From the NCBI GenBank assembly GCA_017409025.1, contig JAFQTN010000010.1, forward strand, positions 1-62,681: a stretch of DNA of 62,681 bases, read 5' to 3'. The translations under genes were made by a program, and so were the position numbers. The DNA comes from Bacilli bacterium (GTDB lineage: Bacteria; Bacillota_I; Bacilli_A; RF39; UBA660). This document shows, piece after piece, positions 8,950 through 60,736 of this stretch (positions within the stretch are counted from its first letter, which is position 1; every line of letters starts with the position of its first letter). The notes under the pieces were generated by a model. That model was not told where the DNA came from, searched no databases, and was given only the letters and a program-made list of their open reading frames with translations.

Positions 8950-8958
8950 GTGATATCT

Positions 8959-9591
8959 ATGAAAGAAAAATTAATAATTATTGGAGCTGGAGGACACTCA
9001 AAATCTGTTATAGATTCTGTTAATCAAGAAAAATATAATATTGAGGGATTTCTAGATGATAATAAAACTGGTAAGCATATGGGTTATCCAATAATTGGAA
9101 AAAAATTGGAAGATATTGATAAATACGAAAATTATAAATATTTTGTAGCAATAGGTGATATAGTTTCACGTAAAATGTGGTTTGAAACATTAAAAAAATA
9201 TAATGTAGAAATTATTAATATTATTGACAAAACTGCTATAATTTCATCATCTTCAAAAATAGGTGTTGGAAATTACATTGGCAAATATGCTGTTGTTAAT
9301 GCTGATGCAGTTATCGGTAATAATAATGTTATTAACACAAAGGCACTAGTTGAACACGAGTGTATTGTTGGAAATCATACTCATCTTTCAACTAATTCCG
9401 TTATAAATGGAAATGTTATAATTAAAGATTGTGTTTTTTTGGGAAGTTCTGCTGTTTGTATTGGACAACTCACAGTAGGTGAAAATTCAATTATTGGTGC
9501 TGGTAGTGTAATTATTAGTGATGTAGAAGATAATGTAACTGTTGTTGGGGTTCCAGGACGAGTTATAAAAAAGAATGGAAATAAGTTATAA
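8959..9591 (+). CDS. NeuD/PglD-family sugar acyltransferase
   Basis: 210 residues. The N-terminus has a Rossmann-like sugar-binding motif (LIIIGAGGHSKSVIDS), the C-terminus a left-handed beta-helix of hexapeptide repeats (IGVGNYIGKYAVVNADAVIG and on), with a catalytic-type His in ALVEHECIVGNH. Family members either O-acetylate sialic acid (NeuD) or N-acetylate the 4-amino group of UDP-4-amino-4,6-dideoxy-GlcNAc (PglD). Because 4,6-dehydratase and aminotransferase genes are also in the cluster, the PglD/LegH role is favoured, but NeuD activity is not excluded. Start: the AGGTGA overlapping the upstream stop codon serves ATG 8959; GTG 8950 lies inside it. Confidence 0.82.
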   Translation: MKEKLIIIGAGGHSKSVIDSVNQEKYNIEGFLDDNKTGKHMGYPIIGKKLEDIDKYENYKYFVAIGDIVSRKMWFETLKKYNVEIINIIDKTAIISSSSKIGVGNYIGKYAVVNADAVIGNNNVINTKALVEHECIVGNHTHLSTNSVINGNVIIKDCVFLGSSAVCIGQLTVGENSIIGAGSVIISDVEDNVTVVGVPGRVIKKNGNKL

Positions 9592-9631
9592 AATATAAGA
9601 TAAAAAGTTATTTGTTAAGGAGTTTAGTTTT

Positions 9632-10627: not shown

Positions 10628-11313
10628 AAAATTTAGCTATTATACCTGCTCGTAGCGGTTCAAAAGGTTTGAAAAATAAAAATATTATGGAATTAAATGG
10701 TATGCCATTACTTGCATATAGTATTAATGCAGCTTTAAAATCTGGTAAATTTTCTCATGTTATGGTATCTACTGATTCTAAAGAATATGCAGAAATTGCT
10801 AAAAAATATGGTGCAGAAGTTCCTTTTTTAAGAGATGAAATTAGTTCAAGTGATTCTGCTTCTTCTTGGGATGTTGTAAAAGAAGTTTTAAATAAATATG
10901 AGGATTTAGGTATTACTTTTGATACTGTAACTTTATTACAACCAACATCACCATTAAGAACCGAAGTAGATATATGTAATGCACATAACTTGTTTTCTGA
11001 AAAAAAGGCAACATCTGTTATATCTGTATGTGAAACAGAACATTCACCACTTTGGTGTAATGTTTTATCAGATTCACTTTGTATGGATGGTTTTTTAAAT
11101 AATAAAAATAATAGTCAGAGACAAAAATTAGATACATATTATCGTATCAATGGATCTATATACATTGTAGATGTAAAACATTTTTTATCAGGAAAAAATA
11201 TATATGATTCAGGAAGTTATGCGTATATAATGCCTATTAATCGTAGTGTTGATATTGATACTAAAGTAGATTTTATTATTGCAGAAGCATTAATAAAACA
11301 TTTGTCTGAATGA
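10624..11313 (+). CDS. neuA: CMP-nonulosonate cytidylyltransferase (NeuA/LegF)
   Basis: Activates the nine-carbon acid with CTP to form the CMP-sugar donor. Short single-domain form (229 residues) with the nucleotide-binding loop IIPARSGSKGLKNKN at the N-terminus, then LLQPTSPLRT and the late acidic segment NRSVDIDTKVDF that binds magnesium in this family. There is no C-terminal acetylhydrolase domain, unlike some NeuA proteins. Overlaps neuB by ATGA and precedes neuC by seven bases. Substrate (sialic against legionaminic acid) follows that of the neighbouring synthase. Confidence 0.92.
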   Translation: MKNLAIIPARSGSKGLKNKNIMELNGMPLLAYSINAALKSGKFSHVMVSTDSKEYAEIAKKYGAEVPFLRDEISSSDSASSWDVVKEVLNKYEDLGITFDTVTLLQPTSPLRTEVDICNAHNLFSEKKATSVISVCETEHSPLWCNVLSDSLCMDGFLNNKNNSQRQKLDTYYRINGSIYIVDVKHFLSGKNIYDSGSYAYIMPINRSVDIDTKVDFIIAEALIKHLSE

Positions 11314-11320
11314 GGTTAAT

Positions 11321-12487
11321 ATGTCAAAGAAATATAAAGTAGCATATGTTACTGGCTCTAGAGCTGATTATGGTATTGTAAGAAATTATTTGTTCTATCT
11401 TAATCAAGATAAAGATATCGATTTTAGTTTGTTAGTAACAGGAGCACATTTAGACTCACGTTATGGTAATTCATTATCAATTATTGAAAAAGATAATTTT
11501 AATATTGATTTAAAAGTAAATATAGATATTGACACTACTACTAATAAAGGTATATTAAAAAGCATGGCAATTATTTTAGATGAATTTGGTAGTTATTTTG
11601 AAAATAACAAATATGATTTATTAATTATTTTAGGAGATCGCTATGAGATGATGGCGGTTGCACAAGCTGCTGCAATGCAAAAGATACCAATATTGCATTT
11701 GCATGGGGGAGAAGTAACTTACGGAAATTATGATGAATTTATTCGCCATTGTATTACAAAAATGAGTAGGTATCATTTTGCGAGTACAGAAACTTATAAG
11801 AATAGAATTATTCAATTGGGAGAAAATCCTAACACTGTTTTTAATATGGGAGCACTAGGAGCTGAAAATTGTACTAATATAGATGAAAATCTTGTAGCTG
11901 AAAACATAAAAAATTTAAAAAAGAAGACTTATTTAGTAGTTGCTTTTCATCCTGAAACATTATCTAATATTGATTTAACTAAACAGGTTGATATTATTAT
12001 AAATACTTTAGAAAAATTGTTAGGTAAATATACAGTAGTTTTAATAGGGACAAATGCTGATACAAAGGCAGATATTATTAGAAATAAATGGATGGAATTT
12101 TCAAAGAAAGAAAATGTACATTATTTTGAGAATTTAAATACAGATTCATATTTATACTTATTAAAAAATTCAATTTGTTTACTTGGAAATTCTTCATCTG
12201 GAATTATTGAGGCTCCATCTTTAGGAATATACTCAATTAACATAGGCGATCGTCAAAAAGGGCGAGTTCATGGTGAAAGTGTAATTGATACAATATGTGA
12301 TGAGCAATCAATTATTTCTAATTTTGAAATTGTCCTAAAAAATATAAATATGGGTAATAGTTATTTAAATCCATATTATCAAAAAAATGTTGCAAAAAAT
12401 TATTATTTAAAAACAAAACAAATACTAAATGAAATAAAAGATATAGATCTTAAAGAATTTTATGATATTATTGGGAGGAAAAAATGA
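11321..12487 (+). CDS. neuC: Hydrolysing UDP-sugar 2-epimerase (NeuC/LegG)
   Basis: UDP-GlcNAc 2-epimerase family, hydrolysing branch: releases a free mannosamine-type sugar from a UDP-sugar. Visible family motifs are TGSRADYG at the N-terminus, GDRYEM, HLHGGEVTYGNYDEFIRH, AFHPET and GNSSSGIIEAPSLG, which holds the UDP-binding Ser pair. 388 residues, as usual. With UDP-GlcNAc it would feed sialic acid; with UDP-diNAcBac it would feed legionaminic acid. Its end overlaps the next start by ATGA, and the last 40 codons are duplicated in degenerate form at 7384-7519. Confidence 0.9.
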   Translation: MSKKYKVAYVTGSRADYGIVRNYLFYLNQDKDIDFSLLVTGAHLDSRYGNSLSIIEKDNFNIDLKVNIDIDTTTNKGILKSMAIILDEFGSYFENNKYDLLIILGDRYEMMAVAQAAAMQKIPILHLHGGEVTYGNYDEFIRHCITKMSRYHFASTETYKNRIIQLGENPNTVFNMGALGAENCTNIDENLVAENIKNLKKKTYLVVAFHPETLSNIDLTKQVDIIINTLEKLLGKYTVVLIGTNADTKADIIRNKWMEFSKKENVHYFENLNTDSYLYLLKNSICLLGNSSSGIIEAPSLGIYSINIGDRQKGRVHGESVIDTICDEQSIISNFEIVLKNINMGNSYLNPYYQKNVAKNYYLKTKQILNEIKDIDLKEFYDIIGRKK

Positions 12488-49542: not shown

Positions 49543-49891
49543 GGGGCTGTCTTGGCTTCGACAGGAATATGCATCCCTATTTTGCAGGTCGGGTGTCTAC
49601 GTTACAGACAAACAAAAATAACTGGAAACAGAAATAATTTAGCTGTAGCATACGCTTAATATTAGCGGCTCAGGTTTCACTACTTCTTTTGCTTACGAGA
49701 AGTAATTGAAACTTATAAAGTAAGCTATACTCTACTCCATGACTATAAAGTAGAAAGAATTTAATAGTCTAGTAAATATTTTAGTTTGTTAATTTATTGA
49801 ATATTTATAAAATTATAAAATTAACTAAACCTGTAGATAAATATCGTATAATTATTTTTGGACAGGGGTTCAAATCCCCTCAGCTCCACCA
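49543..49891 (+). ncRNA. ssrA: Transfer-messenger RNA
   Basis: Rescues stalled ribosomes and tags the unfinished protein for degradation. The 5' end GGGGCTGTCTTGGCTTCGACAGG and the 3' end GGACAGGGGTTCAAATCCCC then CAGCTCCACCA form the tRNA-like ends and encode CCA (349 bases). The likely tag reading frame runs from GGA 49624 to TAA 49657-49659 and would read GNRNNLAVAYA; the resume codon is inferred, not certain. Most tags end in ALAA or AVAA, so the AYA end is unusual. The 3' end is a common integration site, see the degenerate copies downstream. Confidence 0.95.
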
Positions 49892-49904
49892 AATTTGTAT
49901 TTTT

Positions 49905-49930
49905 CTAGTACTTTTGTACTAGTTTTTTTT
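49905..49930 (+). terminator. Terminator of tmRNA
   Basis: CTAGTAC / GTACTAG with a TTTT loop and T8, 14 bases after the CCA end. Confidence 0.85.
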
Positions 49931-49963
49931 ATACTCAAACCTACTCTATAAGTTAAATTATTG

Positions 49964-50278
49964 TTATTTATTATTGATAAAATAACTTCTAATATACTTT
50001 TTTGCATCAAACAATGTATACTTTTGACCATTTATAAAAAACAAATCATTATCCTCATGATATTCGTCATAATATAAAACTAATAAATTCTCATAATTTT
50101 TACTAAATACAATCCTATGCGGTGTAATTGAATGTATATTACTCTTATAAAATTTCACAATATAACCATCATAATATGTAATCTTTATTCCACTACTTTT
50201 AAATGTCTTGTTTAATGATTCTTTTACCTCATTATCAAACAACAATCTTTCTACAAAAATTATACGAATTATAATCAC
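49964..50278 (-). CDS. Small protein of unknown function beside tmRNA
   Basis: About 100 residues, mixed alpha/beta in appearance, with Tyr- and Asp-rich segments (VVFSKN-like IVFSKNYENLLVLYYDEYHEDN). No membrane segment or known motif. A perfect AGGAGGTGA lies at the 5' end, but no ATG, GTG or TTG is at a normal distance: GTG 50278 is inside it, and the next candidates downstream are ATA or ATT, then TTG further in. The true start is therefore unclear. Its stop lies on the downstream side of ssrA, facing it. Confidence 0.5.
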   Translation of the reverse strand: MIIIRIIFVERLLFDNEVKESLNKTFKSSGIKITYYDGYIVKFYKSNIHSITPHRIVFSKNYENLLVLYYDEYHEDNDLFFINGQKYTLFDAKKYIRSYFINNK

Positions 50279-50282
50279 CTCC

Positions 50283-50302
50283 TGAAGTTATATATAACTT
50301 CA
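50283..50302. promoter_or_regulatory. Perfect 20-bp palindrome at a ribosome-binding site
   Basis: TGAAGTTATATATAACTTCA, a perfect palindrome, directly precedes the AGGAGGTGA of the minus-strand gene. It could be an operator or an mRNA hairpin limiting access to the ribosome-binding site. Confidence 0.5.
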
Positions 50303-50386
50303 AGCAAACAATATCACATAAATTTATGAAAGTCCACCAAAATAAATGAGTATTTTCATCTTTACTTAAAATATAATAAATAAAAA

Positions 50387-50410
50387 CTTAGTTAGAAAAA
50401 ACTAACTAAG
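50387..50410 (-). terminator. Terminator for the 50430 gene
   Basis: CTTAGTTAG / CTAACTAAG with a 6-base loop; on the minus strand it is followed by T5. Confidence 0.75.
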
Positions 50411-50429
50411 CAATATAACTTTAAATAAA

Positions 50430-51050
50430 TTAAATGCATTTATCTATCACAGTGTATTTACCATCACTAATAGCAATCAATTCAAAATACGGAGGTTGAT
50501 TTGCCTTAATAATTGTTTCAGCAAGAAATATTTTTTCCACTTTTGATACCTCATTAACTTTAGTAGCAATCTTAGAAGTATTAAAATCTTTTAATCCATA
50601 ATAATATACATCACCATTAGATAATAAGAAATAAAAAGAATAGTCCTCACTTCCTCTGACTGGTAGTCCTACAACATCAACAACATTTTCAATATTTGAT
50701 ATTATTGTAGTTACATCATGATAATCTTGAGTGATATTAATTTTACCATTTTTTAACAATCTAACATAATATTTTTTTTCAGCAACAGTTTCCTCAAAAA
50801 CTTTAACTGCAACATCCACAGCATAAGGTACATCAGAGTTTAACTTATCAGCATCAAATGTAGTTAAACTAAATTCATCATTCTCTTGAACATTATTGTT
50901 ATTAACATTTTGATTTGTATCAATAATATTAGCATCATTAGATTTTAAATCAATAGTTCCAGTAGCAAATAAAACACACAACACAGATAGTATAATAATG
51001 ATTACAATTAATAATGCAATTACTCCTTTATTATTTTTTTGATTTTCCAC
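50430..51050 (-). CDS. Membrane-anchored island protein A, paralogue of B
   Basis: 206 residues: a basic start MENQKNNKGV, one membrane helix (ALLIVIIIILSVLCVLFATG), an Asn/Asp-rich linker, then an outer domain of about 150 residues with strand-like repeats (FYFLLSNGDVYYYGLKDF, then ELIAISDGKYTVID). No known catalytic residues. The first 35 residues and about 40 bases upstream, with ribosome-binding site and -10 TGTTATAAT, are nearly the same as in the gene at 51682, so the two share an ancestor. Function unknown. Confidence 0.7.
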   Translation of the reverse strand: MENQKNNKGVIALLIVIIIILSVLCVLFATGTIDLKSNDANIIDTNQNVNNNNVQENDEFSLTTFDADKLNSDVPYAVDVAVKVFEETVAEKKYYVRLLKNGKINITQDYHDVTTIISNIENVVDVVGLPVRGSEDYSFYFLLSNGDVYYYGLKDFNTSKIATKVNEVSKVEKIFLAETIIKANQPPYFELIAISDGKYTVIDKCI

Positions 51051-51087
51051 TTTTTATTCACTCCTTCCATTTTAATTATAACATTAA
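51001..51087 (-). repeat. Duplicated leader and N-terminal coding segment (copy 1; copy 2 at 52140-52224)
   Basis: The ribosome-binding site, -10 box and the first 12-15 codons of the 50430 and 51682 genes are shared. The stretch CCACTTTTTATTCACTCC and the following TTCCATTTTAATTATAACATTAA, read on the plus strand, is identical in both. Confidence 0.8.
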
Positions 51088-51117
51088 ATCTTTATATTTA
51101 AAACATAAAATTAATGT

Positions 51118-51220
51118 TTTGAGAATATTATGAGATTTTTTTGAGATTATTATGAGAATTTGATAAAACAAATTGTGGTCTAATTTGAGACTTTTTTGAG
51201 ACTTTTTTGAGATTATTTGT
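51118..51220. repeat. Short direct repeats of a TTTTTTGAGA unit
   Basis: The sequence repeats TTTTTTGAGAxT several times, most clearly as GAGACTTTTTTGAGACTTTTTTGAG at 51189-51213 (two adjoining blocks). It lies in the upstream region of island protein A. Confidence 0.5.
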
Positions 51221-51371
51221 AGGTTTATATGAAACAAAAACCAAAATTTATTTTTACTATAATTTTTATTACAATTGTATTTTGTATTTATTTTTTTCCT
51301 TACATAATTATATTAAATTTTACCTATATCACAAACAAAAATCATTTATTTACTTGATTTATTGAGTTAAA

Positions 51372-51446
51372 GGGGTTCGAGAACTTACCAACAACTGCAC
51401 CAATTTGATTTAGTCGAACCCCTGTTGAAAAAGGTTCGTTTTTTTA
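51372..51446 (+). repeat. Degenerate ssrA 3'-end copy 1 with its terminator
   Basis: GGGGTTCGAGAAC then GCACCA (51372-51402) resembles GGGGTTCAAATCCCC then CTCCACCA of ssrA, and a hairpin CGAACC / GGTTCG with T7 follows (51415-51446), like the ssrA terminator in position. The middle part is divergent. Interpreted as a decayed attachment site. Confidence 0.5.
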
Positions 51447-51496
51447 TACCCTAAAACCCAATTTCCCACCATCTTTGATAAATTTCTTTACATTTT

Positions 51497-51530
51497 AGCA
51501 AACATTAAATTACGGAATGTTTGCTTTTTT
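51497..51530 (+). terminator. Terminator-like hairpin between ssrA 3'-end copies 1 and 2
   Basis: AGCAAACATT / AATGTTTGCT with a 9-base loop and T6. AGCAAACA also recurs after copies 3 and 4, at 52743 and 55302 in related form. Confidence 0.6.
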
Positions 51531-51537
51531 CAACAAA

Positions 51538-51563
51538 GAGTTCGAATCCCCTCAACTCCCCCA
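51538..51563 (+). repeat. Degenerate ssrA 3'-end copy 2
   Basis: GAGTTCGAATCCCCTCAACT then CCCCCA. Aligned with ssrA GGGTTCAAATCCCCTCAGCTCCACCA it differs at only a few positions, making it the least decayed copy. No terminator follows it. Confidence 0.65.
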
Positions 51564-51628
51564 CTGATGGGAGTCGAACACAACATACCACAATAAATTA
51601 TGAAAGTCTAGCAATACATAAAAAATAT

Positions 51629-51653
51629 AAACTTTTTCAGTTTATATTTTTCA
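51629..51653. terminator. Terminator of island protein B
   Basis: AAATATAAACT / AGTTTATATTT around TTTTC, with A- and T-rich flanks, 30 bases past the stop of the minus-strand gene. Confidence 0.7.
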
Positions 51654-51681
51654 TTTAAGCGCTATTGTTTAATTAAATAAT

Positions 51682-52188
51682 TTATTTTTCTTCAATAACA
51701 TAATACCCTTGACCAGAACAATTTGCAACTGCTCCATCTTTATCAAATAATAAAATTGGTGCATTTTCATCATTAGTTTCTATAGTTAACACATTTTTCT
51801 TTGAATAGAAATAATCACTTGTTAAAATAATTTCACCATTTTCTACACCAAACGTACCTATTAATCTAGAATAACCCTCACATTGATTTTGGATTGCTTC
51901 AAATGTACCATCTTCCTTAAAAATTATATAACTTTTATCGTCAGATATATTTTTATATTTAGCCGAAAAATAATTATTAGTAGAACTAGAAGAATCTTGA
52001 TCATTTGTCGGCGTATCATTAGGTTGATTTGAATTATTGTTATTTTCTTCCGTTACATTATTATCATTTACTTTACTTGAATTAAAATTAATAGTTCCTG
52101 TAGCAAATAATACACATAATGTTGCTAATATAACTATTATTACAACTAATAATGCAATTACTCCTTTATTATTATTTTGTTTTTCCAC
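51682..52188 (-). CDS. Membrane-anchored island protein B, paralogue of A
   Basis: 168 residues. The N-terminus (MEKQNNNKGVIALLVVIIVILATLC and on to FATGTI) is near-identical in layout to the gene at 50430. After it comes an Asn/Ser/Thr-rich linker (about residues 37-70), then an outer domain of about 95 residues with strands (SYIIFKEDGTFEAIQNQCEG, LIGTFGVENGEIILTS) reminiscent of lipocalin-like or DUF5640-like small beta barrels. The outer domain is unrelated to that of protein A by eye, suggesting domain swapping behind a constant anchor. Function unknown. Confidence 0.7.
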   Translation of the reverse strand: MEKQNNNKGVIALLVVIIVILATLCVLFATGTINFNSSKVNDNNVTEENNNNSNQPNDTPTNDQDSSSSTNNYFSAKYKNISDDKSYIIFKEDGTFEAIQNQCEGYSRLIGTFGVENGEIILTSDYFYSKKNVLTIETNDENAPILLFDKDGAVANCSGQGYYVIEEK

Positions 52189-52379
52189 TTTTTATTCACT
52201 CCTTCCATTTTAATTATAACATTAATTTATCATTTTTTGAATATCTTGATTATATTTTTTTAGGGAAATATAAACAATAATAAGTTAAATCACAAAATAT
52301 ATTATTAACATTATTTTTACAAACAAAGCCTTAATTTATATAATTTTATAAATTCAATTTGCAATTAATATTAAGTGTA

Positions 52380-52460
52380 TTTGTACTACTTTTTGTCAAC
52401 TGATTTGCAATTCATTTGAAGTATGTTTGTACTATTCATTTGCAGTTGAAGTATAGGTTA
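52380..52460. repeat. Short direct repeats upstream of ssrA 3'-end copy 3
   Basis: TTTGTACTA and ATTTGCAATT/ATTTGCAGTT with TTGAAGTAT recur twice over 80 bases (52382 and 52427), and a related string, TTTGTACTA then GTATAGGTT, appears again at 55330-55370 near copy 4. They may be arm-type sites of an integration region. Confidence 0.4.
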
Positions 52461-52627
52461 ATATGAAATTTTGCACTTTCAAATACAAAACATTAACCAT
52501 TATGATCTATACTTAATATAATTATCAAAATAATTTAAGTAATAAAAATAACTACAATATTAAATAATAATTATATTCGTATTACTATCATCAATACCCT
52601 TAAAATATAAGGTTTTAAGACATTAAA

Positions 52628-52752
52628 GGGGTTTGGTAGTCTCCCCTCTGTCCCACCAAGTTGTTTTTATCGAATACTTGTTTGTAAATATTCGTTTTTT
52701 TGTGTCTAACTCCCTCTGCTCGCTACAAACATACTACATTTTAGCAAACAAA
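52628..52752 (+). repeat. Degenerate ssrA 3'-end copy 3 with terminator and shared tail
   Basis: GGGGTTTGGTAGTC then TCCCCTCTGTCCCACCA (52628-52658); the last 17 bases match ssrA TCCCCTCAGCTCCACCA at 14 positions. A hairpin CGAATA / TATTCG with T7 (52671-52701) follows, then a tail of about 52 bases ending AGCAAACAAA that is about 80% identical to that after copy 4. Confidence 0.6.
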
Positions 52753-52781
52753 GATGTTATAACCTATCTATGCTTCTATTT

Positions 52782-53837
52782 TTAATTAATGCATATACCT
52801 TGCATTATTTGGTCCATTCCTAATTTATTTGTTTCTTTGATGTCTATAATCTCTGAATAATTAAATATATTTTCCATATTATCTTCAAATTTTTCGTATG
52901 TTATAAATGTAAATTCATAATTTTTGCCCTCTTTTAATTTATCATTTCTTTTAATTCTAACCAGAATTGTTTCAGCTTGATATTGTTTTAATGTTAAATT
53001 TACATAATTATAATCATTATCTTTTTGTAATTTCAAAACTTTATATGTTCTAGTAAAACTACAAGGTTCTTTTATTTTTTTACCACAATATTCTCCTTTT
53101 AAATTTGAAGCAATATTAGGTGTTCCAAAATATAAATCTTTATTATCTTTAGTATTACAAATTATTACTTCATAATTATTATGTTTATAAATTTCTATTT
53201 CCTTGTTTGAATTGGTTGCTCTGTTTATGTTATTATTCTTATACTGATCGTTCAAATACTTTTTAACTTTATCTATTGTAACTTGTTTATATTGTAATGC
53301 TATTTTTAAATCATAATAATTATTGTCAATGTTACTTACTTGCAATGAATCAATGCCATAAAAATATATTTTATAATCCTTTTGATTAAGTGTTAATTTG
53401 TTATTTAATTCATTTTTATCACTTTCAATAACATTCATATTATAAATGTCTATTTTAGGATATTTTTTAGCATAATAAATAATTATAATTATTATCGATA
53501 TTATACTAATCGATACAGCAAGTACTAATATTTTTAATAATTTATTTATTCTTCTTTCTTGTTTATTATTAGCATCTACTGTTGTTATTAATGCTTTTTC
53601 ATAGCTTTGTCGAATATTTTCTTTGTTTGTTTTTTCTCCATTTATTAATTCTTCAATGGATATCTCTAAAACTTCACATATTTTTTTATAAAGTGATGCA
53701 TCTGGCATATTGATACCATTTTCCCATCTAGAAATCGTTCTATTATTTATTCCTAGTTTTTCTGCCAATTTTTCCTGTGTTAATTTTTTTTGTTTTCTTT
53801 GTTCTGTAATAAATTTTCCTATTTTAATTAAATTCAT
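52782..53837 (-). CDS. Membrane-anchored XRE regulator 1
   Basis: 351 residues. An N-terminal HTH (KIGKFITEQRKQKKLTQEKLAEKLGINNRTISRWENG) is followed by a linker, one membrane helix (LKILVLAVSISIISIIIIIIYYAK, about residues 105-127) and an outer domain of about 220 residues with four cysteines and no known motif. The layout, DNA-binding inside and sensing outside, suggests a one-component membrane regulator, a design frequent in Firmicutes. It is paralogous to the gene at 53983 in the HTH but not in the outer domain. AGGAGG precedes the ATG. Confidence 0.82.
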   Translation of the reverse strand: MNLIKIGKFITEQRKQKKLTQEKLAEKLGINNRTISRWENGINMPDASLYKKICEVLEISIEELINGEKTNKENIRQSYEKALITTVDANNKQERRINKLLKILVLAVSISIISIIIIIIYYAKKYPKIDIYNMNVIESDKNELNNKLTLNQKDYKIYFYGIDSLQVSNIDNNYYDLKIALQYKQVTIDKVKKYLNDQYKNNNINRATNSNKEIEIYKHNNYEVIICNTKDNKDLYFGTPNIASNLKGEYCGKKIKEPCSFTRTYKVLKLQKDNDYNYVNLTLKQYQAETILVRIKRNDKLKEGKNYEFTFITYEKFEDNMENIFNYSEIIDIKETNKLGMDQIMQGICIN

Positions 53838-53982
53838 TTTATTCCTCCTCTTTCTATTTTAAATTTATAATAATTCATTAAAATTTAACACGACATAAAA
53901 CGAGAATTATATAATCAATTGTTTTTTTTATTATATCACACACTATCTTACTGCATAGTAAAAAACATCGTTGTTTGATGCT

Positions 53983-54717
53983 TTAATTTTGACACATTAA
54001 ATATGAATTTTTTATTATTTCTTTAATATCATCTTTATTTTTTCTTCTTTTTAATTTATTTATTCTTTCATTAGTATAATAAACTTTAACTTTTTTCTTA
54101 TCTAATTCTAACTTATGAAATCCCTGAAATGTTATTTCTTTGCCTTCTAATAAATTAACCATTGTTTGTGAATATTCCCAATTACTTTTTCTCTTGTTAT
54201 AAACATTGATTGTAGAATGAACTAAATAAATATCTTCGCTGTCCATTTCTTTTATTACAAAATCTGTGTTCCAAACACTTTGACCTTTAGTATAAATATG
54301 TAAAATATCATTTTCTATATTACAACCACTTACTCTAGAATCATATTTAATATCAATTAGATAAAAATTATAAAAAAGCCAACCAAATATTGTTACTATT
54401 AATAAAATTATTAAAGCCCATTTTAATTTTCTTTTCTTCTTCACTTCAATATTATTAACAATTGTTATTATGTTTTCTTCTAATTTTTTTATATAACGGC
54501 TCTCTTCTAGTTCTTCGCCACTCATTAATTCATTAATCGAAATGTTTAATTCATCACACAATAATTTAAACATTGATAAATCAGGCATATTCTTCCCATT
54601 TTCCCAATTCGATATTGCACGGTCTGTCACACCTAATTTCTCTGCAAGTCGCTCTTGTGTTAGCTTCTTTTTCTTTCTCTTTTCTGCAATAAATTTACCT
54701 ATCTTTTCTTGATTCAT
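53983..54717 (-). CDS. Membrane-anchored XRE regulator 2
   Basis: 244 residues from ATG 54717, which has AAAGGAG upstream; the ORF could extend to 54813 but that part lacks a ribosome-binding site. HTH (KIGKFIAEKRKKKKLTQERL, then AISNWENGKNMPDLSMFKLL), a linker, one membrane helix (KWALIILLIVTIFGWLFYNFY) and a short outer domain of about 110 residues. About the same HTH as regulator 1, so they probably arose by duplication and then took different outer domains. Adjacent to the candidate toxin-antitoxin locus, transcribed away from its RNA. Confidence 0.82.
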   Translation of the reverse strand: MNQEKIGKFIAEKRKKKKLTQERLAEKLGVTDRAISNWENGKNMPDLSMFKLLCDELNISINELMSGEELEESRYIKKLEENIITIVNNIEVKKKRKLKWALIILLIVTIFGWLFYNFYLIDIKYDSRVSGCNIENDILHIYTKGQSVWNTDFVIKEMDSEDIYLVHSTINVYNKRKSNWEYSQTMVNLLEGKEITFQGFHKLELDKKKVKVYYTNERINKLKRRKNKDDIKEIIKNSYLMCQN

Positions 54718-54840
54718 ACTATTTCTCCTTTCAATACCAATTTTACTATTATAACTATACTTATAACACGAAACATTGCTTGAGTTAACTTCTTTATTTC
54801 CCATTTTATTCATAATTGTTTTACAATACTAACTAAATTA

Positions 54841-54869
54841 TTGCAAATCAAACAAGTTTATGTTATTAT
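54841..54869 (+). promoter_or_regulatory. Promoter of the candidate antisense RNA
   Basis: TTGCAA (54841-54846) and TATTAT (54864-54869) with a 17-base spacer and TG extended -10. No ORF follows it, which points to an RNA product. Confidence 0.65.
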
Positions 54870-54875
54870 GTATAT

Positions 54876-54990
54876 AGATGAAGGAAACTTCATACAATAT
54901 TAAAAGGAACATTCAATATTCGCACGTTGAGTGTTGCCATATATTATGGAAATCACCTAAGTCATTGCTGAGTTAGGTGATTCTTTTATT
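54876..54990 (+). ncRNA. Candidate small structured RNA (putative antitoxin)
   Basis: About 110 bases following a good promoter. Hairpins in order: ATGAAG-gaaa-CTTCAT (54878-54893), AACATTCA / TGAGTGTT (54908-54935), CCATA / TATGG (54937-54949) and the terminator AATCACCTAA / TTAGGTGATT with TTCTTTT (54951-54987). No coding frame. It is convergent with, and at its 3' end overlaps, the mRNA of a small hydrophobic peptide on the other strand, as in type I antitoxins. RNA existence is not shown by sequence alone. Confidence 0.55.
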
Positions 54991-55069
54991 TTAAAGTTAC
55001 AAATAGTAAACCTATAAGTAAAAGGATAATGATAATCAATGATGAGATTAAAAAAACTTTCTTTGACAT
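54986..55069 (-). CDS. 27-residue hydrophobic peptide (putative type I toxin)
   Basis: MSKKVFLISSLI, then an uninterrupted hydrophobic run to LFVTLK: one membrane helix capped by lysines. AGGAGGTGATAAG precedes the ATG with seven-base spacing, the strongest translation signal in the region. Promoter TTGATT-17-TATAAT lies about 60 bases upstream. Small single-helix peptides with a convergent structured RNA are typical of type I toxins in Firmicutes. It belongs to no family I recognise. It may also simply be a membrane microprotein. Confidence 0.6.
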   Translation of the reverse strand: MSKKVFLISSLIIIILLLIGLLFVTLK

Positions 55070-55130
55070 CTTATCACCTCCTTTCTTTTAGAAAAGAGGC
55101 ATCACCCAACTATTAAATGTTCCTAAAATC

Positions 55131-55159
55131 ATTATAGCAAACAAATGTATATTAATCAA
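55131..55159 (-). promoter_or_regulatory. Promoter of the putative toxin
   Basis: On the minus strand, TTGATT (55159-55154) and TATAAT (55136-55131) are 17 bases apart. The leader between it and the toxin ATG is about 60 bases and could fold. Confidence 0.6.
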
Positions 55160-55184
55160 TATAAATTTTTAAAAAAGCACAAAT

Positions 55185-55311
55185 CGGGTTTGGCAGGATT
55201 CCACCTGTCGCACCATAAAGGGAGCAATCTAACCCACAAACTAGCGGGTTGTTTTTTTTGTGTCTACCACCCCCCTGTTCGCTACAAACATACCACGTTT
55301 CAGCAAATAAA
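55185..55311 (+). repeat. Degenerate ssrA 3'-end copy 4 with terminator and shared tail
   Basis: GGGTTTGGCAGGATTCCACC then TGTCGCACCA (55185-55215) aligns well with copy 3. A hairpin AACCC / GGGTT with T8 (55231-55259) follows, then the tail GTGTCTACC ... GCTACAAACATACC ... AGCAAATAAA (55259-55311), which is related to that after copy 3. Open frames on both strands here are considered spurious. Confidence 0.55.
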
Positions 55312-55386
55312 TCTATTACAAAATAATACTTTGTACTATTTTTGTATAATTCATGTATAGGTTCGTTTGTGGTCTGTATACATATT

Positions 55387-55426
55387 AAAAGAAGCATTGA
55401 TGGAATATAACATCAATGCTTCTTTT
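55387..55426 (-). terminator. Terminator of the lipoprotein gene
   Basis: A perfect 16-bp inverted repeat, AAAAGAAGCATTGATG / CATCAATGCTTCTTTT, with an 8-base loop, directly abutting the stop. Confidence 0.85.
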
Positions 55427-56296
55427 CTAATTCATTTTATGTAATAATACTTCATTTCCTTTTGAATCTACACCATATAAATTCTTAGCCACATCATAAT
55501 CAAATGCTGGTACTAATTTAAATGACACAATATTCTTAGCATCTAACTTCTTAAATGGAAAATTAAATGAAAATCCATAATTACTATCATCTTCTGACAT
55601 ATAAACATTACCACTTGTAGTCAGTATTAATAAATGAGCATTTCCTGCGCAGCATATTTTTCTTACTGCAATATTTTTTACTGGTTCTTTATCAAATATC
55701 ATTTTTTCTTCGTTTGTTTTTAAATTCTTAGCATATAATTTATTATTTTTTACATACGCCTTATATTTAACTAATCCTTCTTCGCTACTGATGCCATGAT
55801 TCATTGCATCTACTTCTGTTTTTAATTCAATTTCTTCAGTTGTTTCTTTTTCATATTCATAATTTTCTTCGTTAATTTCAAATTCAGCATACACATTAAA
55901 ACTTACACTATTATCTATATTAGAGCTTGATGATTTAAATATTTCTTTTACTATTCTATATTTACCACTTTCTAGTTGTCCGTATCCATATACCCAATTA
56001 ATACTAATTTCCACTGATTTCCCTGACTCTAATCCCCAGGCCGGTAGATTAAATACCATTTCATGAATAGTTTGGATCTTACTCCACTTTCCATCAATTT
56101 CTTGTTCAATATAATAAGGTTCTCCATATGAATAATCGGTATTTGATTCATTTTTTAATATCAATGTAACTCCTATAGGAGCAAGTGTCCCTTCTTTAAC
56201 TGATAAAGTAACGTTTTTGTCTATCTTATCATTACATCCAGTCAACCCTAGGATCAAAATGCCAAAAAACAATATGCCTAATAATTTTCTTTTCAT
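55427..56296 (-). CDS. Lipoprotein with bacterial Ig-like domain
   Basis: 289 residues from ATG 56296, five bases after a GGAGG. Signal peptide and lipobox (MKRKLLGILFFGILILGLTGC), so Cys 21 should be lipidated after cleavage. The N-terminal domain (TLSVKEGTLAPIGVTLILKN, then YYIEQEIDGKWSKI, WVYGYGQLESGKYRIVKE) resembles the Big_14-type Ig-like fold. The C-terminal 110 residues carry beta-rich segments (HLLILTTSGNVYMSEDDSN) similar in style to the outer domain of island protein A. Function unknown; it is in an island of secreted proteins. Confidence 0.75.
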   Translation of the reverse strand: MKRKLLGILFFGILILGLTGCNDKIDKNVTLSVKEGTLAPIGVTLILKNESNTDYSYGEPYYIEQEIDGKWSKIQTIHEMVFNLPAWGLESGKSVEISINWVYGYGQLESGKYRIVKEIFKSSSSNIDNSVSFNVYAEFEINEENYEYEKETTEEIELKTEVDAMNHGISSEEGLVKYKAYVKNNKLYAKNLKTNEEKMIFDKEPVKNIAVRKICCAGNAHLLILTTSGNVYMSEDDSNYGFSFNFPFKKLDAKNIVSFKLVPAFDYDVAKNLYGVDSKGNEVLLHKMN

Positions 56297-56371
56297 AGTT
56301 CCTCCGTTTGACAATGTAAATTCTATTGTCCCTTTCATTATACCATATCAATTTGTCGTTGAAAAGTAAAA

Positions 56372-56399
56372 AACATTAACGTTATGTTACATTAATGCT
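56372..56399 (-). terminator. Terminator of the 56417 gene
   Basis: On the minus strand, CATTAATGT / ACGTTAATG with one mismatch and a 5-base loop, followed by T6. Confidence 0.6.
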
Positions 56400-56416
56400 T
56401 CTACTTATTTTAATCT

Positions 56417-56830
56417 CTATTTTTTTCCTCGTTCTTCCCAATTACTATAATTTACATCTTCATAATCTTTGCATTTTAAATACGTATTCCACGCAAATTC
56501 ATTTTCAGCTACACATCTTACTTCTACTCTTACTTTGCAATATGATTTACCGTCTACATCTAATAATAATTCTTTATCCATACCTCTTTGATTAATTAGT
56601 GTTTCATCAGTATAAACTGTTATTCCACTATTTTCTCCACGACTTGGATTACAATAATATTTAGTTAGTTTTACATAAGCATCTATTTCAGGTTGGATAT
56701 TTTCTTTAATTTTTGCATAATGTAATTGATTTCTTTTATTAATTTTGTTTTTATAATTTATTCCAATTACAATGCTACTAATCGAAACAACTATTAATAG
56801 TGCTATAACTATAATTAATTTCTTTTTCAT
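56417..56830 (-). CDS. Small membrane-anchored or secreted protein, unknown
   Basis: 137 residues: an N-terminal hydrophobic signal/anchor (KLIIVIALLIVVSISSIVIGI), then a basic linker and an outer domain with four cysteines (YYCNPS, KSYCKV, VRCVAENEF, LKCKDY) that could form two disulfides. No family recognised. Follows the 56839 gene by eight bases, so both are probably in one operon with the membrane protein at 57352. RBS GAGGGAA. Confidence 0.65.
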   Translation of the reverse strand: MKKKLIIVIALLIVVSISSIVIGINYKNKINKRNQLHYAKIKENIQPEIDAYVKLTKYYCNPSRGENSGITVYTDETLINQRGMDKELLLDVDGKSYCKVRVEVRCVAENEFAWNTYLKCKDYEDVNYSNWEERGKK

Positions 56831-56838
56831 AATTCCCT

Positions 56839-57330
56839 CTACTTGTATTCTTTAAACTCTACTTTGTAACAATCCTCAATTGTCAAACTTTCAATACTAT
56901 TCTTTGAAATACATAAATATGTATTTTCTTTGTTTTTAACCATCTGATTAATTATATTTCCATTATGATAACTTTTTTCTCTTCTCATAAATGTTTTATT
57001 TGTTATCGGATATCCACTAGTTGTTTGTATTGCTTGACATTCTCCAGTATCATTAAAACCTCCAGATGATTCTAATAATTTAAGATTATCTGTTTTGGGT
57101 TCATAAATGAACAAACCTACTGTACAATGTTCATTTGGATTATCAAAATTAACATTTAAGAAAAACGAACCCTTCCAAAAATTATTTGTTAATACACCGT
57201 GTGCATAATTATAATTTGATCCTGTTTTTACTTCTAATATATAATATGTTGGATTATATATTACATAAACTATTAATCCAACTATCAATGAAATAATAGT
57301 ACTTGTGATAATTAATTTATTATTTTTCAT
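56839..57330 (-). CDS. Membrane-anchored protein, unknown
   Basis: 163 residues from ATG 57330, with GGAGGG immediately upstream; the longer frame starting at 57345 overlaps that ribosome-binding site. One N-terminal helix (LIITSTIISLIVGLIVYVIYN) and an outer domain with four cysteines (NEHCTVG, TGECQAI, TYLCISK, IEDCYKV), which might form two disulfides. No catalytic motif visible. Part of the 56417-58194 group. Confidence 0.65.
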   Translation of the reverse strand: MKNNKLIITSTIISLIVGLIVYVIYNPTYYILEVKTGSNYNYAHGVLTNNFWKGSFFLNVNFDNPNEHCTVGLFIYEPKTDNLKLLESSGGFNDTGECQAIQTTSGYPITNKTFMRREKSYHNGNIINQMVKNKENTYLCISKNSIESLTIEDCYKVEFKEYK

Positions 57331-57351
57331 TTTTCCCTCCGACATTATTTT

Positions 57352-58194
57352 TTAACTTTTAAAAAAATTAATTAAATTATAAAATACTGTTGAATTTTTT
57401 GTTTTTTTTATTAATGAAGATATATTTAAAATTATAAATCCTCCAATTATTAATGCCCATATATATATTATTAAATAAACTATATATGGAACATATTGCC
57501 AAATTATATCAAATATTGGTAATGTTGGTGTAAAATACGGGCTAATATAAAACATATTAAATGTTTCTCCGTTCAAAATACCTATATTATAAATAATAAT
57601 ATTTATGGATATGGCTGTGACTACAAAACATAAAAATATTATAATTGCTTTTTTAAATGATTTTATATTAATACTTACTTCACCAGATAATAATAAATAT
57701 ACGGAAATAACAAAACTACCTAAGTGAAGCCACATCGTATGAATATTTACTAATATATCACTTGTAAAACAACTATCGGGTATAATCATCGTTGCAATAC
57801 TTCCTAGTATAGTAATATAACTTATATAAGATAATAAACTATCTCTTATTTTTCCTTTTTTTAAAAATAGACATGTTATACTTACATATATTGGTGTAGT
57901 ACATAGTTGAAAAGGAAATGCATACCATTGATAGTCCCATATTACCAAATTAGTTATAGTATCATAATTGAATGACCATATTAATTGTTTTAATACTTCT
58001 AATATTAAAGACACTACTCCATAAGTACATAAGACTATTTTTAATTGCTTTTCATTATGTTTTTTTCTCTTTTTATATAAAATTAATATTATTATAAAAC
58101 TTACAATAATCCATAGCCAATGAAACCAACCAAATGCAACAGGAGTATTCATCTCTCCTTGTAGCCAATAAAGTATTTTTTCAAATAAATTCAT
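57352..58194 (-). CDS. YwaF/TIGR02206-like integral membrane protein
   Basis: 280 residues with seven to eight membrane helices. The pattern of hydrophobic segments with WFHWLWIIVSF, WYAFPFQLCTTPIYV, TMWLHLGSF and late YVPYIVYLIIYIW resembles the YwaF family (TIGR02206) of unknown function. Its gene is first in the 58194-56417 run. No charged catalytic site. Identity with the family is by motif impression only. Confidence 0.6.
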   Translation of the reverse strand: MNLFEKILYWLQGEMNTPVAFGWFHWLWIIVSFIIILILYKKRKKHNEKQLKIVLCTYGVVSLILEVLKQLIWSFNYDTITNLVIWDYQWYAFPFQLCTTPIYVSITCLFLKKGKIRDSLLSYISYITILGSIATMIIPDSCFTSDILVNIHTMWLHLGSFVISVYLLLSGEVSINIKSFKKAIIIFLCFVVTAISINIIIYNIGILNGETFNMFYISPYFTPTLPIFDIIWQYVPYIVYLIIYIWALIIGGFIILNISSLIKKTKNSTVFYNLINFFKS

Positions 58195-58425
58195 ATTACT
58201 ACCTCTTACTACATTAAATATATTTAAATTATTTTATCTGTCATTTATATTATAACATCATATATAGATATTTCAAATATTATTATCATTTTATTTTGTA
58301 TAAAGAAAGACACAATATTTCTTAATGTTAAAAAGAGTGCTGTGGATACTATTTATTTGTCTTTTGTTCTTACAAAAAATATGCTATAATACGTATATAA
58401 TAAATAAATTTGAGGAGTTTTATGT

Positions 58426-58962
58426 ATGGATAGTTTAGAAAGATTAACTAAAAAATTTATATTAGTAAATATGGATGATGCAGAAATTTCTACGGATGAT
58501 AAGCATATCATAGGTACTCATGCTCTTGCGACTTGTACAGGATTACTTTTATATTGTAGAGAAAGAAAAGTTGCAATCGTAGCTCATATTGGTACTGACA
58601 TTGATAAAACAATAAATAAAATATTAGATTTATTAGAAAATAATAATATTAAATTCACTAATATTGAATACAGAGTAATTCAAGGTTATTATGGTCGTGA
58701 TGAAAATTTTATTAACACAATTATTTATAAATTAAAATTTGGAAATGTGTATAGAATGTTATCGAATCATTTTACTCCATATGGAAGTACAAAAAGACAA
58801 AGGAACGATATTGAAATTGATTATAATACTTTATCAAAACAATTTGCTTTTGATGCATTGTCTGGCGTTTTTGTTACTGATAAAGTATTGTTTGGAACAT
58901 ATTATTACATAGTTAATCCTCAAAATGATACATTAGATAAAAATGAGAAAAAGCGTATATGA
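58426..58962 (+). CDS. CheD-like protein (putative Cys-His deamidase fold)
   Basis: 178 residues, no membrane segment. The stretch IIGTHALATCTGLLLYCRER followed by KVAIVAHIGTD matches the pattern of CheD: Thr 31, Cys 37 and His 54 have the same spacing (6 and 17) as the catalytic Thr, Cys and His of chemotaxis deamidase CheD. CheD deamidates glutamines on chemoreceptors in other bacteria. No chemotaxis or flagellar gene is visible here, so another substrate is likely. Homology is inferred from spacing and context, not from a search. Preceded by GAGGAG. An extension beyond residue 85 is not recognised. Confidence 0.5.
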   Translation: MDSLERLTKKFILVNMDDAEISTDDKHIIGTHALATCTGLLLYCRERKVAIVAHIGTDIDKTINKILDLLENNNIKFTNIEYRVIQGYYGRDENFINTIIYKLKFGNVYRMLSNHFTPYGSTKRQRNDIEIDYNTLSKQFAFDALSGVFVTDKVLFGTYYYIVNPQNDTLDKNEKKRI

Positions 58963-58973
58963 AAGGATAAAAT

Positions 58974-59597
58974 ATGAAAATAATAAATATTGGTTTAAAA
59001 AACAAAAGAACAATTCTTTTAGTAGTAACTTTTCTATTATTTATAATTTTAACAATCTTAATGCTAAATGATAATTTAATTATATTAGATGATATAGTTC
59101 ATAATTTTATACTATCTATTAGAAATAACTATCTTACTACAATATTAAAATATATTACTCATACAGCGACATCGTATACTCTGATTTTATTTACTATAAT
59201 TTTATTAATAGTAATTAAAAATAAAAAAATACCATTATTTATAATGCTTAATTTAATATTTTCATTTACTACTAATGAAATTGTTAAATTAATATTCAAA
59301 AGAGATAGACCGTTAGGAATAAATTTGATTGAAGAAACAAATTACAGTTATCCATCAGGTCATTCTATGGTAGGATTGGCTTATTATGGATTTATAATTT
59401 ATTTGATTAATAAACATATTAAAAGTAAAAAACTTAAAAATACATTAACTATAACTTTAATTATAAATATATTATTAGTGGGTTTCAGTAGAATCTATCT
59501 AGGAGTACATTATTTAACTGACGTTATTGGTGGTTTCTTGCTGGGAATTATTTATTTAATAATATATACTAATATAATAAGTTTAGAAAAGAAGTGA
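58974..59597 (+). CDS. PAP2-family phosphatase
   Basis: 207 residues with six membrane helices. The acid phosphatase/lipid phosphatase motifs are all present: KRDRP, YPSGHSM and SRIYLGVHYLTDV. These enzymes dephosphorylate lipid phosphates such as undecaprenyl pyrophosphate or phosphatidic acid. The substrate is not defined by the sequence. It follows the CheD-like gene by 11 bases, and tmcAL by -3, so these three are probably one operon. Confidence 0.92.
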   Translation: MKIINIGLKNKRTILLVVTFLLFIILTILMLNDNLIILDDIVHNFILSIRNNYLTTILKYITHTATSYTLILFTIILLIVIKNKKIPLFIMLNLIFSFTTNEIVKLIFKRDRPLGINLIEETNYSYPSGHSMVGLAYYGFIIYLINKHIKSKKLKNTLTITLIINILLVGFSRIYLGVHYLTDVIGGFLLGIIYLIIYTNIISLEKK

Positions 59598-59602
59598 TAA
59601 AT

Positions 59603-60736
59603 ATGAAAATAATTGGTGTAATTGCTGAATATAATCCTTTTCATTTAGGCCATCTTTATCAAATAAATAAAATAAAAGAAATGTATTCTGATTCTCTTAT
59701 AATAGCTATAATTAGTACTAATTTTACAGAACGTGGAGATATTTCTATATTAAATAAGTGGGATAAAACAAGAATATGTCTAGAGAATAATATAGATATG
59801 GTTATTGAATTGCCTACTCTATATGCAACACAGTCTTCTGATATTTTTGCCTATGCTGCTTTGAGTATATTAAATCATTTCAAAATTGATACTCTAGTAT
59901 TCGGTTCTGAAACTGATGATATAAATACATTGTATAATTTAGCAAATATTCAGTTAAATAATAGTGAATATGATAAATTAGTAAAAGAATATATGGATAA
60001 GGGAATAAATTATCCTACTGCAATGAGTAAAGCGCTAAATAAATTAACTAATATTAATATTGATAAACCTAATGATTTACTTGGGTTATCGTATATAAAA
60101 GAAATAATTAAAAACAACTATAAAATTACTCCAATATCGATAAAAAGAAGTAATGATTATCATGGTAAAAATATTAATAATAATATTATTAGTGCTAATC
60201 TTATTAGAAAACTATTACAAGATAATGCTGATATAACTTTACATGTTCCACAAATAACTAATAAATATATATATAGAAACGTTTCTATTAATAATGCATT
60301 TAATTTATTAAAATATAAAATTATTAATGATATTAATTGCTTAAATAAATATTTAACCGTAGATGAAGGAATAGAAAATAGAATTATTAAATATATAAAT
60401 AAATCTAACACATGGGATGAATTAGTTATGAATATCAAAACAAAAAGATATACTTATAATAAAATTAACCGTATGTTAATACACATTTTACTGGGAATAA
60501 CTAAAGAAGATAATAATAAAGAGATATATTTAAGAATATTAGGATTTAACCAATCAGGAAGGATTTATCTAAATAAGATTAAAAAAGATATATCAATTCC
60601 TCTATTTGTAGGCTATAAGAAAAATATATCTCATACTCTAGATTTAGAATATAAAAGTACATATATATATTCACTAATTGTAAATGATCCTACATTAATA
60701 GTTCAAGAATATAAAAATAAACCTATAATCAAATAG
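59603..60736 (+). CDS. tmcAL: tRNA(Met) cytidine acetate ligase
   Basis: 377 residues; makes N4-acetylcytidine at the wobble position of elongator tRNA-Met using acetate and ATP. The N-terminal nucleotidyltransferase has GVIAEYNPFHLGHLYQI (HxGH), then ISTNFTERGDISILNKWDKT, and RSNDYHG later. Members were formerly annotated as YlbM or 'nucleotidyltransferase'. ATG 59603 is chosen over the in-frame GTG 59594 because the latter has no ribosome-binding site. Terminator overlaps the stop. Confidence 0.92.
   Translation: MKIIGVIAEYNPFHLGHLYQINKIKEMYSDSLIIAIISTNFTERGDISILNKWDKTRICLENNIDMVIELPTLYATQSSDIFAYAALSILNHFKIDTLVFGSETDDINTLYNLANIQLNNSEYDKLVKEYMDKGINYPTAMSKALNKLTNINIDKPNDLLGLSYIKEIIKNNYKITPISIKRSNDYHGKNINNNIISANLIRKLLQDNADITLHVPQITNKYIYRNVSINNAFNLLKYKIINDINCLNKYLTVDEGIENRIIKYINKSNTWDELVMNIKTKRYTYNKINRMLIHILLGITKEDNNKEIYLRILGFNQSGRIYLNKIKKDISIPLFVGYKKNISHTLDLEYKSTYIYSLIVNDPTLIVQEYKNKPIIK

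What the first reader, a model, noticed from the sequence alone, without database searches (positions are those of the whole stretch)
58426..58962. CheD-like Cys-His-Thr site outside chemotaxis
Residues Thr 31, Cys 37 and His 54 reproduce the spacing of the CheD active site, in a protein followed by PAP2 phosphatase and tmcAL genes and without chemotaxis genes nearby. If confirmed, this would be a deamidase or an inactive relative with a new partner in a probably non-motile lineage.
Basis: partly seen in the sequence, partly recalled or inferred. Interest (0 to 1): 0.5.

Follow-up and report, generated by a model that had tools for sequence, protein, structure and literature searches.

The report
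CheD-like deamidase in a receptor-less bacterium
A small protein from a bacterium that has no chemotaxis receptors has the fold and the active-site residues of CheD, an enzyme known for modifying such receptors, so it probably deamidates some other, still unknown, target.

Summary
The 178-aa protein at 58426-58962 has Thr31, Cys37 and His54, spaced as in CheD (T21/C27/H44) and human NTAN1 (S69/C75/H92). AlphaFold models of it and of a relative both match CheD best (Z 11.5 and 11.2), with NTAN1 next (9.5 and 11.1). Cys and His are kept in all 23 intact copies read, the Thr in 16. It therefore belongs to the CNF1/YfiH/CheD cysteine-hydrolase superfamily.

It is not a CheD in the strict sense. 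It misses the CheD profile, most of CheD's other conserved blocks and the CheC-contact pair, and its genome (95.9% complete) has no match for chemoreceptor, CheW or FlhA families. It belongs to an unnamed, patchy family (22 of 386 genomes of the same taxonomic family, own included) that separates from CheD in a tree; the genome has a second copy.

PAP2 and tmcAL are unlikely partners: the pair stands downstream of the tmRNA gene in four sister species without this gene, and the interval between tmRNA and PAP2 is a variable slot.

Most likely it is an intracellular protein amidohydrolase with a non-receptor substrate. Activity and substrate are inferred, not shown.

The parts
58426..58962 (+). 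CheD-like orphan protein, 178 aa, predicted cytosolic Cys-His amidohydrolase
   Evidence: fold; no strong hydrophobic stretch (best 19-residue Kyte-Doolittle mean 1.11)
58516..58518 (+). codon of Thr31 (counterpart of CheD Thr21, NTAN1 Ser69)
   Evidence: sequence; Thr at this place in 16 of 23 copies (15 of 22 by pattern; L071 by eye)
58534..58536 (+). codon of Cys37, predicted nucleophile
   Evidence: invariant in alignments of 11, 13 and 19
58585..58587 (+). codon of His54, predicted base
   Evidence: invariant in alignments of 11, 13 and 19
58684..58686 (+). codon of Gly87, the only other invariant residue besides Met1; aligns with the second Gly of CheD's GGA block
58412..58417 (+). GAGGAG, ribosome-binding-site-like
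   Evidence: sequence read directly
58974..59597 (+). PAP2-family membrane phosphatase; neighbour of tmcAL in four sister species that lack the CheD-like gene
59594..60736 (+). tmcAL (HIGH nucleotidyl transferase family)
49543..49891 (+). tmRNA gene ssrA, left edge of the variable slot in which the CheD-like gene is the last gene

Best explanation
The gene encodes a small cytosolic cysteine amidohydrolase of the CNF1/YfiH/CheD superfamily, on the CheD/NTAN1 side of it. Cys37 attacks a side-chain carboxamide of Gln or Asn in a protein, His54 activates the thiol, and Thr31 orients the His; ammonia leaves and an acid remains. Since no chemoreceptor family was found in the genome, the substrate must be something else. 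The gene is accessory: a patchy gene found in different surroundings in small-genome Bacilli. Shown: fold match, site spacing in sequence, conservation of Cys and His, absence of the receptor and CheW families, patchy distribution. Inferred: that it is active, that the bond is an amide, that the substrate is a protein, that it stays in the cytosol.
For: Fold: the model's best PDB match is CheD 2F9Z (Foldseek 2.9e-6, TM by query 0.49), then NTAN1, then YfiH/PgeF; VIA-align Z 11.5 to CheD over 136 residues at 3.4 A, 9.5 to NTAN1. A model of a relative gives Z 11.2 and 11.1. Sequence: CheD 2F9Z ranks first in the PDB for the 11-member profile (0.0086; a PgeF is fifth, 0.47) and second for the 19-member one (0.022). 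hhalign P is 4.4e-5 against CheD over 137 columns, 5.9e-4 against PgeF over 71, 0.5 against unrelated PAP2 over 12. The weak single-protein hits have this superfamily at the top: N_Asn_amidohyd 6.3e-4 in Pfam, XopAK 0.0033 and CheD 0.041 in NCBIfam. Cys and His are kept in 23 of 23 intact copies. In four pairs dN is below dS (0.062/0.213, 0.034/0.167, 0.27/1.64, 0.30/0.98). NTAN1 C75A and H92A are dead and S69A is about 5-fold lower (passages of PMC7022378), which fits Cys and His invariant but Thr replaceable.
Against: The models rest on 4 sequences each, with mean pLDDT 67.5 and 68.5 for the best of five (the others down to 40.2 and 50.7); the block of residues 31-40, which holds Thr31 and Cys37, averages only 69, and the C-terminal part is poor. 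No coordinates were at hand, so the closeness of the three residues was not measured. Single-protein family scores are all below curated cut-offs. Profile A5 has an unrelated dehydrogenase above CheD in the PDB (0.013), and A1 finds only chance hits there. The copies were found with profiles that carry the motif, so conservation of Cys and His is partly a result of the search. The third residue is V, A or I in 7 of 23. No substrate or recurring partner was found.
Confidence: 0.6

Rival explanations
1. A binding protein with the CheD fold whose catalysis no longer matters: it binds a partner and Cys/His are structural or vestigial.
For: In B. subtilis a CheD mutant with normal receptor deamidation but weakened binding to CheC and receptors has the null chemotaxis defect (passages of PMC3513319). 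A CheD paralogue without the Cys stands beside a CheC-like gene (by eye) in G879 (L051), so inactive forms exist. The Thr is lost in 7 of 23.
Against: Cys and His are kept through very deep divergence (15-37% identity to the window protein in A5), with only M1 and one Gly beside them.
Confidence: 0.15
2. A hydrolase or lyase of small molecules, like PgeF/YfiH (cell-wall precursor or nucleoside chemistry).
For: YfiH/PgeF structures are the third group of fold matches. Loose searches with the family also bring in proteins of relatives that by eye are PgeF-like (L004, L006, L018, L028).
Against: No PF02578 match for the window protein; weaker profile match than CheD (against 71); CheD and NTAN1 rank above in both models.
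Confidence: 0.1
3. A bacterial N-terminal asparagine amidase like NTAN1.
For: PF14736 is the best Pfam hit of the window protein (6.3e-4) and hits 4 of 11 members at E up to 1; NTAN1 ties with CheD for the second model.
Against: Below the cut-off (19.4 against 24 bits). The C-terminal region that covers the NTAN1 active site and gives Nt-Asn specificity is absent: the model aligns only to NTAN1 residues 42-193.
Confidence: 0.06
4. An accessory interaction factor (against phages, plasmids or neighbouring cells) that deamidates a target of the rival, carried in mobile slots.
For: Patchy distribution, a broken copy in G144, variable slot after ssrA, two copies in different genera with 94.5% identical coding bases and homology that stops near the gene ends, recombinase- and relaxase-like genes in two of 13 stretches (by eye). 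Deamidase toxins exist in the superfamily.
Against: No PADLOC hit, no relative in viral contigs, nothing better than E 2 in phages and plasmids, no secretion part or immunity partner recognised.
Confidence: 0.09

Closest known systems
CheD chemoreceptor glutamine deamidase (T. maritima 2F9Z, B. subtilis CheD)
   Same: Fold, Thr-Cys-His spacing 6/17, N-terminal strand before the site, similar length
   Different: No Leu (LP) after the His, GGA reduced to one Gly, no IG of IGxxN, no G-x4-R, no MF pair, no receptor or CheW family in the genome, separate clade (100/100) in the tree
NTAN1 protein N-terminal asparagine amidohydrolase (6A0E, PF14736)
   Same: Fold and Ser/Thr-Cys-His site with identical spacing; best Pfam hit
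   Different: Lacks NTAN1's C-terminal part; score under the cut-off; 10-11% identity over the aligned structure
PgeF/YfiH (PF02578)
   Same: Superfamily fold; the Cys of PgeF aligns with Cys37
   Different: About 250 aa; the window protein has no PF02578 match; weaker profile match
CheD-like proteins of Mimiviridae (e.g. Moumouvirus A0A2P1EL59) and the XopAK family (NF041406)
   Same: CheD-type fold or profile outside chemotaxis (Foldseek 6.0e-9; NCBIfam 0.0033 for the window protein, best family member 5.7e-5)
   Different: Viral or secreted-effector settings; XopAK score 16.9 against a cut-off of 150 bits

Membership tests
CNF1/YfiH-like cysteine hydrolase superfamily | alpha-beta-beta sandwich fold | tested here: met
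   CheD, NTAN1, YfiH/PgeF, CNF and BLF1 fill the first 26 rows for both models
CNF1/YfiH-like cysteine hydrolase superfamily | catalytic Cys and His | tested here: met
   Cys37 and His54, invariant in 19 of 19 aligned; activity itself not tested
CheD (PF03975) | match to the curated profile | tested here: not met
   No PF03975 match in the protein or genome; NCBIfam CheD NF010015 13.9 against 251 bits
CheD (PF03975) | Thr-Cys-His site at 6/17 spacing | tested here: met
CheD (PF03975) | other conserved blocks: Leu (mostly LP) after the His, GGA, IGxxN, G-x4-R | tested here: not met
   L49, G92, G93, A94, G107, N110, G131, R136 are invariant in 6 CheDs (LP itself in 5 of 6). In the profile alignment the window protein keeps one Gly of GGA and an Asn near N110, none of the rest; its relatives keep only that Gly throughout
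CheD (PF03975) | CheC-contact MF pair | tested here: not met
   M101/F102 of B. subtilis CheD (passages); the MF of CheD L049 aligns with Gly-Arg here. CheDs of species without CheC lack the pair too
CheD (PF03975) | chemoreceptor substrates in the cell | tested here: not met
   No PF00015 or PF01584 match in a 95.9% complete genome
CheD (PF03975) | receptor glutamine deamidase activity | not testable with these tools
   needs an assay
NTAN1 (PF14736) | profile score above cut-off | tested here: not met
   19.4 against 24 bits
NTAN1 (PF14736) | appended C-terminal region over the active site | tested here: not met
   Protein ends after the shared core; aligned to NTAN1 42-193 of about 305
PgeF/YfiH (PF02578) | profile match | tested here: not met
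   None for the window protein at E up to 10; one relative at 0.14
XopAK type III effector family (NF041406) | profile score above cut-off and a type III export system | tested here: not met
   16.9 against 150 bits; no PF00771 match in the genome

The most novel reading that the evidence does not exclude
Small-genome Bacilli without chemotaxis carry a patchy family of CheD-type deamidases that has been rewired away from chemoreceptors and that moves between variable gene slots, some next to tRNA or tmRNA genes; it would be an unrecognised layer of protein deamidation in these cells, either regulating an own target or acting in conflict with phages or competitors.
Probability: 0.3. Interest if true: 0.6.

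Novelty: new variant of a known kind. Interest (0 to 1): 0.42.

Why it matters
The protein deamidases of this superfamily that are named in the paper seen here act on chemoreceptors, N-terminal Asn, or the targets of toxins. A conserved CheD-type active site in an organism without chemoreceptors means there is probably at least one more substrate, and the small genomes make the search for it tractable. The family is not recognised by the curated CheD profile, so its members are probably annotated as hypothetical (inference).

Tried and rejected
PAP2/tmcAL as partner: judged unlikely. The pair is kept in four sister species with other genes upstream; the pair was not found together in the other two (G001 no PAP2 match; G004 only a weak match in another setting), and only one of the six sisters (G006) is over 90% complete. 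The window protein has no match below E 1 in the four sister loci. Against this: a tmcAL gene lies 6.7 kb from the relative in G486. I first thought the sisters' gene before PAP2 might be a diverged homologue; aligned, it shares no Cys/His site, and it has no convincing match in the window (best E 0.042).

Neighbours: of 182 proteins in 13 stretches the cross-genus matches other than the family itself are HTH regulators (386 bases from the gene in one genus, 3.6 kb and more in the other), tmcAL (0.6 and 6.7 kb), pnp with rpsO and truB-like genes (47 bases and 4.3 kb for pnp), and ffh/ftsY- and RNase J-like genes; no pair is within 1 kb in both. Names other than tmcAL are by eye.

Mobile-cassette ends: flanks shared by L059, L037, L003/L041 and L070 look like hairpin terminators; in L037, L041 and L059 one occurrence lies beside a tRNA gene. 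The window has none at E 0.01. I built no claim on them. No second copy of the last 14 or more bases of ssrA was found in the window, so a classical att duplication is not shown.

Homologues elsewhere: none confirmed in viral contigs, nothing better than E 2 in phages and plasmids. Outside the phylum only the pattern scans of genome contigs were run (none, then three loci, all near relatives), so a wider distribution is not excluded.

Rows that were not relatives, by eye: L004, L006, L018, L028 are PgeF-like, L027 is a CheD beside CheC- and receptor-like genes, L072 and L074 are other proteins. L005, L007, L008, L026 and L029 were not read. In the family count I dropped G523 (L072) and G158 (L074) from 24 of 386, leaving 22, the own genome included; of these L071 and L073 are assigned by motif only, L069 is cut by the contig end and the copy of G144 is broken by stops and was not read. 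Of ten CheD stretches taken, L078 gave a wrong frame and was dropped; L076, L077 and L082 were left out of A6, and L077, L078 and L082 out of the tree.

The three-sequence profile A1 against the PDB gave only ovomucoid hits, chance. RNA families were not searched.

Full report
What is there. The window (contig 27 of a 1.28-Mb genome, 95.9% complete) carries at 58426-58962 (+) a 178-aa ORF followed after 11 bases by a PAP2 phosphatase gene and then tmcAL. NTAN1 Ser69/Cys75/His92 and CheD Thr21/Cys27/His44 have the same spacing (passages of PMC7022378). The pattern occurs in 1 of 50 ORFs of the window and in 69 of 20,000 shuffles of the protein, so spacing alone is suggestive, not proof.

Fold. 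An AlphaFold model from 4 sequences (mean pLDDT 67.5; blocks of ten from residue 11 to 80 at 85-90 except 31-40, with Thr31 and Cys37, at 69; C-terminal part poor) has CheD 2F9Z as its best Foldseek match in the PDB (2.9e-6), followed by NTAN1 and YfiH/PgeF. VIA-align gives Z 11.5 to CheD (136 residues, 3.4 A), 9.5 to NTAN1, 7.6 to YfiH/PgeF, about 5 to CNF1 and BLF1, and other folds at 4.1 and below. A model of a relative of 29% identity (L021) gives 11.2 to CheD and 11.1 to NTAN1. Among viral structures the best match is a protein named CheD in Moumouvirus (6.0e-9).

Relatives. With the single protein, 8 of 395 genomes of the class matched, the own genome included. On reading, two others were true relatives (L002, L003), two were PgeF-like (L004, L006), and three (L005, L007, L008) were not read. 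None of the six other genomes of the genus matched. Profiles raised this to 11 of 386 genomes of the family (one of them, L018, PgeF-like on reading) and 24 of 386 (22 after reading). A sample of the phylum gave 8 of 392, among them a true CheD (L027) and a PgeF-like protein (L028), with L026 and L029 not read. G144 has a copy with in-frame stops. The own genome has a second, distant member on contig 1, 74020-74484. In an alignment of 19 only M1, C37, H54 and G87 are invariant. In the 23 intact copies read, Cys and His are kept in all; the spacing is 6/17 in 7, 6/15 in 15 and 6/20 in one (L071, by eye); the first position is Thr in 16, Val in 5, Ala in 1 and Ile in 1. The third catalytic residue varies across this superfamily and is the least essential in NTAN1. 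Since the profiles contain the motif, copies without it may have been missed.

Not CheD proper. Against three CheDs of two relatives in the class (L049, L050, L051) and three from plasmids (L079-L081), the window protein lacks the Leu after the His, one Gly and the Ala of GGA, the IG of IGxxN and the G-x4-R block, and the MF pair that marks CheC partners. In a tree of 20 family members and 7 CheDs the two sets are separated at 100/100 (three CheD rows have an odd composition and L070 a long branch). PF03975 finds nothing in the genome and nothing in 195 genomes of the phylum, while it rings in 5 of 14 controls and in 2 of 43 genomes of the family of G348. Profile comparison still joins the two: hhalign P 4.4e-5 over 137 columns, against 5.9e-4 over 71 columns for PgeF and 0.5 for unrelated PAP2. 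It is built like a CheD/NTAN1 at its site; it is not a member of either family by the tests above.

Context. In 13 stretches around 13 copies, one of them the broken one (182 proteins; stretches of 6 to 15 kb), no other gene is within 1 kb of the family's gene in two different genera. In four of six sister species the order is ssrA, variable genes, PAP2, tmcAL; the ssrA-to-PAP2 distance is 9.1 kb here and 9.7, 2.8, 1.7 and 1.1 kb there, and a gene family not found in the window stands next to, or one gene before, PAP2. In the other two sisters the locus was not found. So the CheD-like gene sits at the end of a variable slot, and its link to PAP2 and tmcAL looks positional. Two copies in different genera share 94.5% of their coding bases, with the similarity covering little more than the gene, which points to transfer. 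dN is below dS in four pairs, which points to selection on the protein.

Lifestyle. No match for chemoreceptor, CheW or FlhA/SctV-type families. Three records of near relatives are titled Bacilli (two, one from goat rectum) or Mollicutes (one). That this is the order known as RF39 is recollection, not a result.

Mechanism. The likeliest reading is a cytosolic Cys-His(-Thr) protein amidohydrolase with a substrate other than a chemoreceptor. That it is active, that the bond is a Gln or Asn amide, and that the target is a protein are inferences from the nearest structural relatives. The strongest rival is a binding protein, since for B. subtilis CheD binding matters more than deamidation for chemotaxis (passages of PMC3513319).

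Literature. Searches for 'CheD-like', XopAK with deamidase, and CheD with NTAN1, non-motile, YfiH, chemoreceptor, mimivirus and orphan listed no paper that by title and abstract start describes this family (open-access library only; one search listed 12 of 15 and one search listed 8 of 40). Passages were read only in PMC7022378 and PMC3513319.

Noticed in passing
G000 contig 1, 74020-74484 (L030 1450-1995 +, L040 6970-7515 +): A second CheD-like member in the same genome, from another subfamily (6/15 spacing, Val in place of Thr).
   Followed up: partly
window 49892-58973: Variable slot between ssrA and PAP2-tmcAL in this genus (1.1 to 9.7 kb), holding here HTH regulators (by eye), a Big_14 protein and a TMEM164-like protein.
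   Followed up: partly
L037 7022-7816 and 10681-11894; L059 1412-2135: In G476 the sequences just before and after the CheD-like gene recur near another orphan gene, next to tRNA-Leu and tRNA-Met; possible gene slots tied to tRNA ends.
   Followed up: partly
L051 1351-1821 +: In G879 a second CheD, matching the CheD profile and beside a CheC-like gene (by eye), has Ser for the catalytic Cys and Asn for the His: probably an inactive CheD.
   Followed up: no
L071 1450-2286 +: A 279-aa relative with a CheD-like TYGLGPC...H site and a long C-terminal extension.
   Followed up: no
L063 (G144 contig 1, 10694-11239 -): A copy of the family broken by four in-frame stops in a genome whose congener G099 has an intact one.
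   Followed up: no
window 7822-12484: By eye, a run of genes resembling a sialic-acid-type sugar synthesis cluster (NeuB-, NeuA- and NeuC-like starts) inside a polysaccharide locus; no profile search was run.
   Followed up: no
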